Source: Tetrapisispora phaffii CBS 4417 (Eukaryota > Ascomycota > Saccharomycetes > Saccharomycetales > Saccharomycetaceae). From it: a stretch of DNA of 64,000 nt. Positions 605 to 5,418 of this stretch are shown here, piece by piece (within the stretch, counting starts at the first letter, position 1; each line of letters starts with the position of its first letter). The stretch spans positions 62,001-126,000 of the forward strand of contig NC_016527.1 of NCBI RefSeq assembly GCF_000236905.1. The letters are read 5' to 3'. Made by a program: the position numbers and the translations under genes. The notes below the pieces were generated by a model. It made no database searches. It saw nothing but the letters and a program-made list of their open reading frames with translations, and was not told where the DNA came from.

Positions 605-1957
605 TTACATAAATTCTCCTAACTTAGCGTTTTCCTTTTCTATTTGCATTAGCCTTTGTTGCTCATCGTCTTGGTTTAATTCCTTTATCATCTCTTCTTC
701 TTCAACGGTAAGACCTGTTATGTCCTGAGTTGGAATAAGTTCAGCATCCATTCGGACACTTGGTGCACCTTGTAAGTATCGTATATGTTCTAGGCACCGT
801 ATTCTTAGGTCTTCTAGATATTTTTTACTATTCATGTTTTCGTATAGATCATCAAGAACCGGATAAAGCGAATAATCTGGACCAAACTGGTTACGGAATG
901 GCATGTCTTCAGGTAACTCCGATTGAAGTAGCACGTTATTCAGAATACCCGTTTCGTAAGCGTATAGTCTTGACACATTTCTTGGGGTGTAACCACCGCC
1001 TCCTACGACAACCATAGGAATACCGAATGATCTAATAAACTTAACACACTCACCATGCGCTTTAATATTCAAATTAAAGCAACCTAATCTATCGTGTCCT
1101 AAGGAATCTGCACCACATTGTTGGATAATAGCCGTTGGTTTGAATGAAGTAATGATTGGTTCCATGACAGATTTGAAAAGATTTATGTAAGAATCGTCAT
1201 CGATACCATCATTCAATGGCACATTCATCGCAAAATGTTTTCCCTCTGCGCAACCTATTTCATCATAATTACCTGTACCTGGGAAAAATTCACCATTATA
1301 TTTATGAAAAGAGACTGTAAAGACTCTATCCGTTGTGTAAAATGCTTCTTGTACACCATCACCATGATGCAAATCAATATCTATATATAGAACTCTTGGA
1401 TGGTATCTTAATAAGTTCAAAGTCGCGAGAACAATATCGTTCACGTAGCAGAACCCCGATGGATTACTTTTCTTAGCGTGATGCAGACCCCCTGACCAAT
1501 TAATTGCGATATCTGACTGATCATTAATCAATTTCCTGGATGCATCCAGCGATGCGCCTGCATATAGCTTACAATACTCGTATATATTTTGAAAGATTGG
1601 ACAATCGTCACCAATATTATACTTATCGAATGTTCCCCTTGGCATCTTGCTTATATTATCTGGAGACACCTTCGAAAGAAACTCAACATAATCCTCCGAA
1701 TGGAACTGCAACAATTCCTCTTTAGTTGCTTCTCTAGTTTCATATAAGTCCATAATATTATGCAACCCATAAGACGAGACCAAATGATCCGTCAACATAA
1801 ACCTAAATGGTTTCATAGGATGTTTAACACCATAGTGATAATTCGACACCTTTGGATTATAGTGATAAGATACTCTTGGCGAATACGTCGAGCCAAACTC
1901 GAACATTGGCTGCGAGTCTTTGGTCTTTATATCATATGAGAAAGTGCTGGAACTCAT
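605..1957 (-). CDS. HOS2: Class I histone deacetylase Hos2
   Basis: A 450-residue protein, close to the 452 of S. cerevisiae Hos2. Hos2 removes acetyl groups from H3/H4 tails and is the catalytic subunit of the Set3 complex, acting in the nucleus, often over transcribed genes. The class I core is intact: paired histidines H159/H160 (GGLHHAKK), zinc ligands D195 and H197 in DIDLHHGDG, the third ligand D285 in [11 protein letters not shown], and the catalytic tyrosine in GGGGYTPRN (about Y324). The C-terminus is acidic and Glu/Gln-rich, as in Hos2. A GA-rich tract lies directly before the ATG. The neighbour IME4 is divergent, as in S. cerevisiae. Confidence 0.96.
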
Positions 1958-2838
1958 CTCTCTCTCTCTCTCAGTCCACTAAAAACAGAAAAATCAATTA
2001 GCACAGACCCAGAACCACGAATTACACCTCCTAGTGCACTGCTCGATAACCGATTCCAGTGCAAGCATTGAGTACAAACCCATCAGAAGTACAGTCATTT
2101 ATACATAATGGACCTTTTAAAAACGGTTTCAAATCAATTTATCACTGAAAAATGAAATATCGTTCTATACGAATTAGGGTTTAATTACGCATCACGTGTA
2201 TATCATGTGATTGTCAGTAGGGTTCGTAGGGCTTGGTTCTTTTAAAACAAATCTCAAATCGATTGGTGACAGAGGTGAACAAGAGACGTTATAAGAATGG
2301 TTTAAGTTTAAGAGAATCGAAAAGAGACTGTGAATTGATGATAAGATGCTGTCCAGTGTGTTACGATGTGAGCAATTGCCGAGAGACTCTTGTAGGGAAC
2401 TCTCGGATTTGTAGTTTGTAGAGGGCGACGTTCCTCAGCCATGTCTTACGACGTGCAATTTTAGATATCTCTATGAACAGTAAGACGTTTGACAAAGATA
2501 GAGAGCGATCTGCTGATTCTTGATTCCTTGTTATTTAATTTTTGTCAAGCCTCTTCGAGCAGTGTTGGCTGTTTTGATCTCTTCCAATCGTATTGGGTTT
2601 TCGCTCTACAATGGCATGATCAGGCCATCGATTTTAAGATAAAATAGTATATCTGAAAAACTGAGGATAAACATTCTGTAAAGTATAAAAGGAATGAGTA
2701 GTTTGATTGGGAAACTTGGTGAGTTCTTATAGGGTTTGTCAGTGTTGGGAGTGAGAGGTCTTCATTAACAGTAAAGACATTTCGATAGTTGTTTGAAGGA
2801 GCAGGAACCACTTATACACAAACACACACATACTCGCC
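1958..2838. promoter_or_regulatory. Divergent promoter region, HOS2 / IME4
   Basis: About 880 bases between two divergently transcribed genes. A TC run (1957-1973) abuts the HOS2 start. A near-palindromic pair of E-box-like motifs (TCACGTG and CATGTGA, about 2192-2210) could bind Cbf1-type bHLH factors; this is inference. S. cerevisiae has the small ORF YGL193C here, but no convincing equivalent with an ATG was found. The open frames at 2233-2421 and 2620-2811 look like chance. Confidence 0.5.
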
Positions 2839-4416
2839 ATGGTCAACTTGGAATTGTTGGATTTTCTTATAGAAAGCCATGCTCAACTTGTTGCTGAACC
2901 TGTGATGGGGAACATGGAGGATCTTTTTGTGCTCTACAAGGGAATCTACATCGCTTCTGGGGATGATTCGTACTCACTTGAAAGATTTGTTGAGGATATA
3001 GACAGTATAGCCAACACTTCCAAAGGCTCGATCGTTTTTGAAGAGAATAGACTGTTATCGATAGAAAAATCATCCCATATAACTAAGTACATTAAGCTCA
3101 TAGATGTGTACTTATTGAACTTGCTGCATGAGCAGTTAGTTCCAAGCAGTCGTGTGAATCGTACCAAGAATTCAAAAACAGATGCCGTGGAATGTGCACC
3201 TGCTAGCTCATCAAATTTGATGGACCGTTTAATGGTTGCTTTAGATTCAGCAATAGAGATAAAAAGCGACATAGAGTCACGGAAGGAAAAGGTTTGGAAC
3301 CATTATCTGTTTTCGAAACTAGATGAACTATTAACAACTAACGTGGGGTCAAACATTCTCGGGAAAGAGAGAGCCATGCACAATACTCCAGTTGCCGAGT
3401 TCATTCCTATCTGTGCGAATACAGAGCATTCGTCATTACTATCGACGTTATTGTACATTGTGAATAACAAAATAGTCTCTATGCAGACTACTAAACTTAG
3501 TAAATGTGAAGCACAATGTCCTGGTTTCAAAGAATGTCTTTTGAATAACATTCATTATGTGTCAAATCTCAAGCCACAAACCGACCTGACTCTGGGCGAT
3601 TGTTCCTATCTGGATACATGCCACAAACTAAGCACATGCAGATATGTTCATTATCTTCAGTATATTCCTCAAAGCTTGAAAGAGAGAGTTTCCAAAGAGA
3701 GTCAGGAGATGAATAAAATCATGGAGACCAAAAACAGTAAGATATCGTATTACACGCATGGTGAATGTTGCTCATCGTCTTTCAAAACATTATTGCCACC
3801 GCAGTGGATCTGTTGTGACGTGAGAAAGTTTGATTTCAGAGTTTTGGGTAAATTTTCTGCAGTGATAGCTGATCCTGCCTGGAATATCCATATGAATTTG
3901 CCGTATGGGACCTGCAACGACATAGAGCTTCTGGAGCTGCCCCTGGATCAACTGCAAGAGGAAGGGGTCCTGTTTCTATGGGTGACGGGTAGAGCTATTG
4001 AACTGGGGAAAGAGTCCCTAACCAATTGGGGCTACGAGGTAGTGAACGAAATCGCGTGGATCAAGACCAACCAACTGAGCAGAACTATTGTCACGGGCCG
4101 AACCGGCCATTGGCTTAACCATTCAAAGGAGCACCTCCTCGTGGGGATCAAAGGGAAGCCAGAATGGATCAATAGAAATATCGATCTCGACCTAATAGTC
4201 TCCATAACCAGAGAAACCAGCAGAAAGCCAGACGAACTGTACGGAATGGTGGAACGCATGGTCGGCACACACGCCCGCAAGCTTGAGATATTCGGCAGGA
4301 ACCATAATGTCAGACCAGGGTGGCTCACCATCGGAAATCAACTCACAGGCAATTGCATCCACGAGATGGACGTCCAAGAGCGCTACGACAGCTTCTTGAA
4401 CTCCGCCAGCGCTTGA
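2839..4416 (+). CDS. IME4: mRNA N6-adenosine methyltransferase Ime4 (MT-A70/METTL3 family)
   Basis: A 525-residue Ime4, the catalytic subunit of the meiotic m6A writer, which methylates adenosines in mRNA and promotes entry into meiosis in diploids. The N-terminal half is poorly conserved. A Cys-rich CCCH-type zone follows (CSYLDTCHKLSTCRYVHY, about residues 254-271). The MT-A70 domain covers the C-terminal 200 residues and keeps NLPYGT, TGRTGHWLNHSKEH, SRKPDELYGM, KLEIFGR and the GNQL region. The catalytic tetrapeptide at residues 345-348 is DPAW, where the family has DPPW (codons at 3871-3882: GAT CCT GCC TGG). D345 and W348, the residues mutated in catalytic-dead S. cerevisiae alleles, are kept. 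The start is the only sensible ATG. An antisense RNA may control it (see 4581). Confidence 0.95.
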   Translation: MVNLELLDFLIESHAQLVAEPVMGNMEDLFVLYKGIYIASGDDSYSLERFVEDIDSIANTSKGSIVFEENRLLSIEKSSHITKYIKLIDVYLLNLLHEQLVPSSRVNRTKNSKTDAVECAPASSSNLMDRLMVALDSAIEIKSDIESRKEKVWNHYLFSKLDELLTTNVGSNILGKERAMHNTPVAEFIPICANTEHSSLLSTLLYIVNNKIVSMQTTKLSKCEAQCPGFKECLLNNIHYVSNLKPQTDLTLGDCSYLDTCHKLSTCRYVHYLQYIPQSLKERVSKESQEMNKIMETKNSKISYYTHGECCSSSFKTLLPPQWICCDVRKFDFRVLGKFSAVIADPAWNIHMNLPYGTCNDIELLELPLDQLQEEGVLFLWVTGRAIELGKESLTNWGYEVVNEIAWIKTNQLSRTIVTGRTGHWLNHSKEHLLVGIKGKPEWINRNIDLDLIVSITRETSRKPDELYGMVERMVGTHARKLEIFGRNHNVRPGWLTIGNQLTGNCIHEMDVQERYDSFLNSASA

Positions 4417-4580
4417 CGCATCGCTTTCAAACGCATATATAGCTACCAAAAGACACACACAACCCAAGCTTGTACAACTCGCATCTCCAGAATAAATTCA
4501 TTTAATAGATTTAACATATGTATAATTAACTACATAATATACCTCCATTAATATCAAACAGCATTCTCCAATTGAGGACC

Positions 4581-4600
4581 CCATGTAAATTTTTACATCA
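4581..4600. promoter_or_regulatory. Probable a1/alpha2 (haploid-specific gene) operator downstream of IME4
   Basis: The 20-base sequence CCATGTAAATTTTTACATCA matches the a1/alpha2 consensus TCRTGTNNWWANNTACATCA at all but two defined positions. It lies 165 bases past the IME4 stop codon. In S. cerevisiae an a1/alpha2 site in the same place represses the antisense RNA RME2 in diploids, letting IME4 be expressed. The match is read from the sequence; the function is inferred from that precedent. Confidence 0.7.
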
Positions 4601-4612
4601 ACTCGGCACGCA

Positions 4613-4619
4613 TTACCCG
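4613..4619 (+). promoter_or_regulatory. Reb1-type site TTACCCG in the IME4-COX13 spacer
   Basis: TTACCCG followed by G matches the Reb1 core, 13 bases from the putative a1/alpha2 operator. It could help keep this shared region nucleosome-free for COX13 and for an IME4 antisense transcript. Motif match only. Confidence 0.5.
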
Positions 4620-4645
4620 GTCTCTTTTGGCCATGTGACCACAGC

Positions 4646-4652: not shown

Positions 4653-5031
4653 TCACCATTAAAGCCGTCCCCCAAAGGTGTCTCGAGATTTGTTTATCGG
4701 TTGTAAGCACTTTTGACGTCTTTTGCCAAACTGCAAGATCTTGAAACTGGATCCCCAGACCCCCAGACCCTGGATCTGATGCCTCAACACCTGCAACGTT
4801 TGCAAGATTCAGATGTTGCAATAAACAAGCAACTAAGACAGGGGCAGTTTGGAACAACTACCGTATTGTGAACTGCCTTTCAATCTTGAAACGTATCTGT
4901 TGTTGTATATAAGAACCTTTGGTTATTTTCATTGGTAATACCTTGTGTTGTCAAGAGCAGCAAGATATTTATACATTGTATATTTACAAATACGCAAATA
5001 CATTCACACATACACACACACGTTATCTCTA

Positions 5032-5418
5032 ATGTTTAGACAAGCTATAAAAAGAAGTTATGCCACTTTACCTCCATGGGCTATGAAACCTGCTTTTGGT
5101 GCTCCAAACAAGGTAGCTGCTGAAGCTTACAAGAAAGAGCTGAAAGCGGTTAGAGACCATGCTGCTGGTACCTCCAACTTCTGGAAGAAAATTAGTATCA
5201 TGGTCGCAGTTCCAGCTATTGGTTTGGCTACAATCAACACTTACTATGTTGAGGTAGAGCATGCTGAACACAGGAAACATCTAAGTCATGTCAAAGATTC
5301 TGACTGGCCAAAGGATTACGAGTTCCAAAACATTAGAAGCAAGCCTTTCTTCTGGGGTGATGGTGACAAGACATTATTCTGGAACCCTGTTGTTAACAGA
5401 CACATCAAGGACGAATAA
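5032..5418 (+). CDS. COX13: Cytochrome c oxidase subunit VIa (Cox13)
   Basis: A 128-residue nuclear-encoded subunit of complex IV in the inner mitochondrial membrane, peripheral to the catalytic core. The start at 5032 was chosen because MFRQAIKRSYATLPPWA matches the family's presequence; the 29 in-frame codons upstream are leader. One transmembrane helix lies at about residues 46-66 (ISIMVAVPAIGLATINTYYV). The conserved C-terminal block follows: DWPKDYEFQNIRSKPFFWGDG, then TLFWNPVVNRH. Order after IME4 and the strand match S. cerevisiae. Confidence 0.95.
   Translation: MFRQAIKRSYATLPPWAMKPAFGAPNKVAAEAYKKELKAVRDHAAGTSNFWKKISIMVAVPAIGLATINTYYVEVEHAEHRKHLSHVKDSDWPKDYEFQNIRSKPFFWGDGDKTLFWNPVVNRHIKDE

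What the first reader, a model, noticed from the sequence alone, without database searches (positions are those of the whole stretch)
4581..4600. Conserved a1/alpha2 operator downstream of IME4 predicts an RME2-like antisense switch
CCATGTAAATTTTTACATCA, 165 bases after the IME4 stop, fits the haploid-specific gene operator consensus with two mismatches, and a Reb1 core follows at 4613. In S. cerevisiae the same position carries the a1/alpha2 site that silences antisense RME2 in a/alpha cells, giving cell-type control of meiosis. Finding it in a divergent genome suggests the antisense system is ancient. The antisense transcript itself is inferred.
Basis: partly seen in the sequence, partly recalled or inferred. 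Interest (0 to 1): 0.8.

Follow-up and report, generated by a model that had tools for sequence, protein, structure and literature searches.

The report
Mating-type operator behind meiosis gene IME4
A yeast only distantly related to baker's yeast carries, just after its meiosis gene IME4, the kind of DNA switch that in baker's yeast lets a cell's mating type shut off a blocking antisense RNA, so this control of meiosis may be old; the antisense RNA itself has not been looked for in this species here.

Summary
The 20-mer is real and very probably a working a1/alpha2 operator. Exact half-sites at the right spacing, CRTGT-N7-TACATCA, occur 17 times in 12.1 Mb against 2. Seven of those sites lie at HO (three), STE4, STE18, a probable RME1 and a probable AXL1; MATalpha1 has a one-mismatch copy. 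A matrix from those eight ranks the IME4 site first in the window; 0 of 119.6 million simulated positions equal it. The organism is Tetrapisispora phaffii. An RME2-like antisense switch is the best explanation, but RNA, binding and conservation in relatives could not be tested. The 'ancient' claim is partly in print: IME4 antisense RNA in Zygosaccharomyces rouxii. Two differences from S. cerevisiae: this genome encodes an Argonaute and a Dicer, and an apparently complete MATa1 lies beside MATalpha2 at the internal alpha-type MAT locus, so how a1 stays off in alpha haploids is unexplained.

The parts
605..1957 (-). HOS2-type histone deacetylase gene, upstream neighbour of IME4 (gene name by recalled S. 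cerevisiae gene order)
   Evidence: ORF 450 aa; Hist_deacetyl E 2.9e-88
2839..4416 (+). IME4, mRNA N6-adenosine methyltransferase
   Evidence: ORF 525 aa; MT-A70 E 1.5e-56; 58% identical to N. dairenensis Ime4
4434..4441 (-). TATA-box-like TATATATG on the antisense strand, candidate TATA of the antisense promoter (inferred)
   Evidence: pattern scan of the spacer without a chance control
4536..4541 (-). weak TATA-like TATATT on the antisense strand, 40 bases beyond the operator (inferred)
   Evidence: pattern scan of the spacer without a chance control
4581..4600 (+). a1/alpha2 operator: alpha2 half-site CATGT 4582-4586, a1 half-site TACATCA 4594-4600
   Evidence: matrix score 23.4 bits, rank 1 in the window, 0 of 119.6 million simulated positions reach it
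4613..4620 (+). Reb1-type core TTACCCGG, just upstream of the operator as seen from the antisense direction
   Evidence: 3 in the window, 0.41 expected
4906..4913 (+). TATA box TATATAAG, probable COX13 promoter
5032..5418 (+). COX13, cytochrome c oxidase subunit VIa
   Evidence: COX6A E 1.3e-40
2000..4540 (-). inferred antisense (RME2-like) transcription unit across IME4; both ends are guesses

Best explanation
4581-4600 is an a1/alpha2 operator that controls a leftward antisense promoter in the IME4-COX13 spacer. Proposed working: Reb1 at 4613 keeps the spacer open; in haploids RNA polymerase II starts to the left of the operator and runs antisense through IME4, blocking IME4 by transcriptional interference; in a/alpha cells a1-alpha2 sits on the operator, shuts the antisense promoter, and IME4 can be induced for meiosis. 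Shown here: the operator sequence, its rank against this genome's own haploid-specific genes, the IME4-COX13 arrangement, conserved a1 and alpha2 homeodomains. Inferred: promoter, RNA, binding, direction of control.
For: Exact-core sites 17 against 2 in the control. 7 of the 17 lie at five loci assigned to known haploid-specific genes: HO x3, STE4 and STE18 by domain; RME1 and AXL1 by domain plus recalled gene order. Taking 20 such genes (a recalled number) of 5,250, the chance of 5 or more among 30 flanking genes is about 6e-8; counting only the three assigned by domain it is about 2e-4; with a list of 40 genes the two figures are 2e-6 and 1e-3. MATalpha1 has a one-mismatch site 115 bases before its start. 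Matrix result. The a1 homeodomain matches S. cerevisiae a1 (1f43_A, E 2.3e-21) through the recognition helix; alpha2 matches 1akh_B (E 2.7e-24) through the start of the C-terminal tail. S. cerevisiae precedent: a1-alpha2 binds the COX13-promoter site next to the end of IME4 in vivo and does not appear to repress COX13 (PMC517709, passages); antisense RME2 blocks IME4 (PMC3857879, passages).
Against: No transcript or binding data. The antisense TATA candidates are weak and have no chance control. IME4 antisense was not among the antisense units found in all Saccharomyces species analysed in one RNA-seq comparison (PMC4302112, figure legend). An apparently complete MATa1 lies in the internal alpha-type MAT locus, and the part read of the second alpha-type locus is identical, so a1-alpha2 might form in alpha haploids unless a1 is silenced there. 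9 of the 17 exact-core sites (6 intergenic, 3 in ORFs) have no tie to cell type known to me, so not every such site need act as expected. The start of alpha2 was not resolved: its open frame has no start codon before residue 56.
Confidence: 0.75

Rival explanations
1. The operator is real but regulates COX13 (rightward promoter), lowering a respiratory subunit in a/alpha cells; IME4 is regulated some other way.
For: The site is 432 bases upstream of the COX13 start, within the 115-2,212-base range between operator and start codon at the six assigned haploid-specific genes of this genome.
Against: In S. cerevisiae the corresponding site is bound but does not appear to repress COX13 in diploids (PMC517709, passages). 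The Reb1-type core lies between operator and COX13, leaving the operator on the IME4 side.
Confidence: 0.1
2. The site binds a1-alpha2 or once did, but gives no regulated antisense RNA in this species, because MATa1 is now present in the alpha-type MAT locus and the circuit has been rewired.
For: Apparently complete a1 reading frame with two introns in the internal alpha-bearing locus; the one other cassette read across its junction (C13) has no Y region.
Against: Exact sites are kept at HO, STE4, STE18 and probable RME1, a one-mismatch site at MATalpha1, and the a1 and alpha2 homeodomains are well conserved, which a dead circuit would not be expected to keep.
Confidence: 0.1
3. Chance match in an AT-rich spacer.
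Against: Exact half-sites 17 against 2; no hit in 119.6 million simulated positions at its matrix score; about 1e-4 to 8e-4 for one hit in this pre-specified spacer.
Confidence: 0.03

Closest known systems
S. cerevisiae RME2 / IME4 antisense switch (Hongay 2006 and Gelfand 2011 not read, known through passages of PMC4827841 and PMC3857879; a1-alpha2 site by ChIP in PMC517709, passages)
   Same: a1/alpha2 operator in the IME4-COX13 spacer close to the IME4 end; a1 and alpha2 homeodomains present.
   Different: Here the RNA and the binding are unproven; the species encodes Argonaute and Dicer; MATa1 is not confined to an a-type cassette.
Zygosaccharomyces rouxii AS-IME4 (PMC4827841, passages read)
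   Same: IME4 antisense RNA in a haploid outside the genus Saccharomyces, read by its authors as under a1-alpha2.
   Different: RNA was shown there by RT-PCR, and the passages I read name no IME4 operator; here the operator is shown but not the RNA.
Haploid-specific gene operators (HO, STE4, STE18, RME1, MATalpha1)
   Same: Same half-sites and spacing; the matrix built from them in this genome fits the IME4 site.
   Different: This copy lies 3' of the presumed regulated gene, where repression would act on an antisense promoter.

Membership tests
a1/alpha2 haploid-specific-gene operator | alpha2 and a1 half-sites at fixed spacing (CRTGT-N7-TACATCA) | tested here: met
a1/alpha2 haploid-specific-gene operator | same element found at known haploid-specific genes of the same genome | tested here: met
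   HO x3, STE4, STE18, probable RME1 and AXL1, MATalpha1 with one mismatch; GPA1, STE5, FUS3, FAR1, NEJ1 not checked
a1/alpha2 haploid-specific-gene operator | bound by a1-alpha2 in a/alpha cells | not testable with these tools
   needs ChIP or EMSA
RME2-type IME4 antisense switch | operator in the IME4-COX13 spacer | tested here: met
RME2-type IME4 antisense switch | a1 and alpha2 homeodomain proteins encoded | tested here: met
   the start of alpha2 was not resolved
RME2-type IME4 antisense switch | a1 absent from alpha haploids, so that the heterodimer marks a/alpha cells | tested here: inconclusive
   an apparently complete a1 reading frame is present in the internal alpha-type MAT locus; its expression is unknown
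RME2-type IME4 antisense switch | antisense RNA over IME4 in haploids, low in a/alpha | not testable with these tools
   no RNA data
RME2-type IME4 antisense switch | antisense transcription blocks IME4 in cis | not testable with these tools
   needs genetics
RME2-type IME4 antisense switch | operator kept in the same spacer of close relatives | not testable with these tools
   the genome has no relatives held and the homologue search gives proteins without DNA

The most novel reading that the evidence does not exclude
In T. phaffii cell-type control rests on antisense or convergent transcription at two levels. At MAT, a1 lies outside the Y region and is present in the alpha allele, tail to tail with alpha2 (stop codons about 55 bases apart), so that alpha2 transcription shuts a1 in cis and only a MATa allele, which lacks Y-alpha, makes a1. 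The resulting a1-alpha2 then silences an antisense promoter at IME4. All this happens in a yeast with Dicer and Argonaute, where sense-antisense overlap carries a small-RNA risk, so strict mutual exclusion would be needed.
Probability: 0.15. Interest if true: 0.8.

Novelty: new member of a known kind. Interest (0 to 1): 0.5.

Why it matters
If the antisense RNA is confirmed, the RME2 switch predates the split of Tetrapisispora from Saccharomyces and has survived in a yeast that encodes RNAi proteins; in RNAi-capable N. castellii antisense RNAs are reported to be held down, mainly by the exosome and Xrn1 (PMC6713810, abstract and passages). It gives a one-site, easily tested case of whether regulated antisense control of meiosis is ancestral.

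Tried and rejected
Rejected the two-mismatch consensus test as evidence: 247 against 189, 17 against 13.5 in the window at up to three mismatches. A first pattern with the wrong spacing gave 7 hits against 4 in the control and does not include the finding; it was dropped. One mismatch allowed on the core: 154 against 99, too noisy on its own; only the first 100 places were listed, and I used only the MATalpha1 pair from it. RME1 was not confirmed by homology: the search returned only the protein itself; the name rests on C2H2 fingers (the best just under Pfam's cut-off) and recalled gene order beside an ILV5-like gene that I recognised by eye. The AXL1 name rests on an M16 peptidase starting 2.2 kb away and recalled order beside a cyclin gene. 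The first HO site is also 313 bases from the start of a divergent 315-aa ORF, so its gene is not certain. The bacterial promoter scan does not apply to a yeast and was ignored. One tRNA-Cys lies in the probable AXL1 spacer; small ORFs near the unexplained sites were listed but not assigned. In the 881 bases upstream of IME4 my patterns for Rme1, URS1, MSE, Reb1 and a1-alpha2 cores found nothing. The DPAW motif of IME4 is shared by all 12 relatives that I read, of 120 listed, and is ordinary. The matrix test is partly circular: 7 of its 8 training sites were picked by the exact core, and left out of the training the probable RME1 site scores only 14.6 bits, the other seven 21.1 to 26.4. The 12 matrix hits over the window plus 14 loci are circular for the loci, which were fetched because they hold the core; only the window part (1 hit) is free of that.

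Full report
What the window is. The window is bases 62001-126000 of contig 8 of a 12,115,070-base, 17-contig genome. A protein of contig 10 is named as Tetrapisispora phaffii CBS 4417 (TPHA_0J00670), and that strain is listed at 12.1 Mb and 16 chromosomes (PMC5499181, table passage). The order histone deacetylase (HOS2) - IME4 - COX13 - WD40 protein (CDC55) is shown by ORFs and domains; the S. cerevisiae gene names and order are recalled.

The observation. The 20-mer is at 4581-4600, 165 bases past the IME4 stop and 432 before the COX13 start. TTACCCGG is at 4613-4620. The recalled consensus with mismatches is a poor test: 17 against 13.5 expected at up to three mismatches in the window; 247 against 189 for the reversed pattern at up to two mismatches in the genome. 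With exact half-sites at the right spacing the genome holds 17 against 2.

What the 17 sites mark. I fetched about 9 kb around 16 of the 17 sites, as 14 stretches (the 17th is the finding itself), read ORFs of at least 90 aa and scanned 15 of the ORFs of those stretches for domains; the other neighbours I named by eye only. Three sites lie between HO (Hom_end, Hint) and a divergent ORF. One precedes a G-gamma gene (STE18), one a G-beta gene (STE4), one a C2H2 zinc-finger gene that by recalled gene order next to ILV5 is probably RME1, and one lies between a cyclin gene and an M16 peptidase gene that by recalled order is probably AXL1. One is the IME4 site. Six more are intergenic with no tie to cell type known to me: beside a septin and a SHNi-TPR gene; an Ap4A phosphorylase gene; NBP1 and a polymerase epsilon subunit gene; a cyclin and a sodium/calcium exchanger gene; an RPL9-like gene (by eye); an SSO-like gene (by eye) and a kinase gene. 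Three lie inside ORFs. So 14 of 17 are intergenic; the window is 65% coding. MATalpha1 has a one-mismatch site in both alpha-type loci (place relative to the gene read in one). A matrix from the eight haploid-specific-gene sites gives the IME4 site 23.4 bits, the best of the window; 0 of 119.6 million simulated positions of a first-order chain reach it, and 100 column-permuted matrices give none at that score over 190,514 bases. The training set is partly selected by the core, so gene adjacency is the cleaner argument: P about 6e-8 for five genes, about 2e-4 for the three named by domain alone, on a recalled list of 20; 2e-6 and 1e-3 on a list of 40.

Trans-acting parts. MATa1-like and MATalpha2-like homeodomains are found. 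The a1 protein, 84 residues from three predicted exons of L069, matches S. cerevisiae a1 through the recognition helix; alpha2 matches through homeodomain and the start of the C-terminal tail. The start of alpha2 was not resolved.

How it most likely works. Seen from IME4's antisense direction the order is Reb1 core, operator, weak TATA, TATA, the layout expected for a repressible promoter firing towards IME4. In haploids antisense transcription would block IME4; in a/alpha cells a1-alpha2 would stop it. The S. cerevisiae precedent is a site bound in vivo next to the IME4 end that does not appear to repress COX13 (PMC517709, passages) and RME2 blocking IME4 (PMC3857879, passages). RNA, binding and direction are inferred for T. 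phaffii.

How new it is. IME4 antisense RNA is already reported in S. paradoxus (PMC4082610, passages) and in Z. rouxii (PMC4827841, passages). Against this, one comparison did not find it among antisense units present in all Saccharomyces species analysed (PMC4302112, legend); ploidy may explain that. None of the titles and abstract starts listed by my eight searches (several lists were capped) was about an IME4 operator in T. phaffii; the library lacks most subscription journals. I therefore file it as a new member of a known kind.

Two complications that make it more interesting. First, T. phaffii encodes a Piwi-domain protein and a Dicer with the Dicers_N domain; in RNAi-capable N. castellii antisense RNAs are held down mainly by the exosome and Xrn1 (PMC6713810, abstract and passages). 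Second, an apparently complete MATa1, with a start codon and two introns, lies in the internal alpha-bearing locus on contig 5, tail to tail with alpha2 (stop codons about 55 bases apart). The subtelomeric alpha-bearing locus on contig 5 is identical over the part read (start codon into exon 2) and has the alpha2 and alpha1 matches; its last a1 exon was not read. The contig 13 cassette joins X directly to Z and lacks Y, the a1 start codon and the CGCAAC motif that stands just before Z at the alpha locus. If a1 were expressed in alpha haploids the switch could not report cell type, so a1 must be regulated; convergent alpha2 transcription is one possibility (my inference). By position contig 17 ends about 21 bases before the end of this repeat; its last bases could not be read. 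Whether this MAT arrangement is already described I could not settle: the main genome paper (Gordon 2011, recalled) was not read.

Verdict. Operator: about 0.93 likely to be real. RME2-like antisense control through it: about 0.75.

Noticed in passing
L069:542-949 (G000:C5:764541-764948): An apparently complete MATa1 gene (84 aa, two introns) lies in the X repeat of the internal alpha-bearing MAT locus, about 55 bases tail to tail from the alpha2 stop; its start codon is 22 bases after the stop of the upstream gene, so it has almost no intergenic promoter. The part read of the second alpha locus (L074) is identical.
   Followed up: partly
L070:639-1394 (G000:C13:17638-18393): A silent-type cassette in which X joins directly to Z with no Y region, no a1 start codon and no CGCAAC motif, which would make the a mating type simply the absence of Y-alpha and perhaps the switch one-way.
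   Followed up: partly
G000:C2:361284-362240 and L072 (G000:C3:1075500-1077500): A Piwi-domain protein (1177-aa frame) and a Dicer with the Dicers_N domain: the species is probably RNAi-capable.
   Followed up: partly
L065:4505, L056:4473, L057:4387, L062:4510, L068:4655, L063:4429: Six more intergenic a1/alpha2-type sites, five of them with a matrix score above that of the IME4 site, beside genes not known to me as haploid-specific.
   Followed up: no
L064:1402-3384 (G000:C10): The probable RME1 (TPHA_0J00670) found no relative but itself in the large protein search, so it is very fast-evolving or misassigned.
   Followed up: partly
window 2839-4416: IME4 has DPAW where the METTL3 family is recalled to have DPPW; all 12 yeast relatives that I read share it.
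   Followed up: yes
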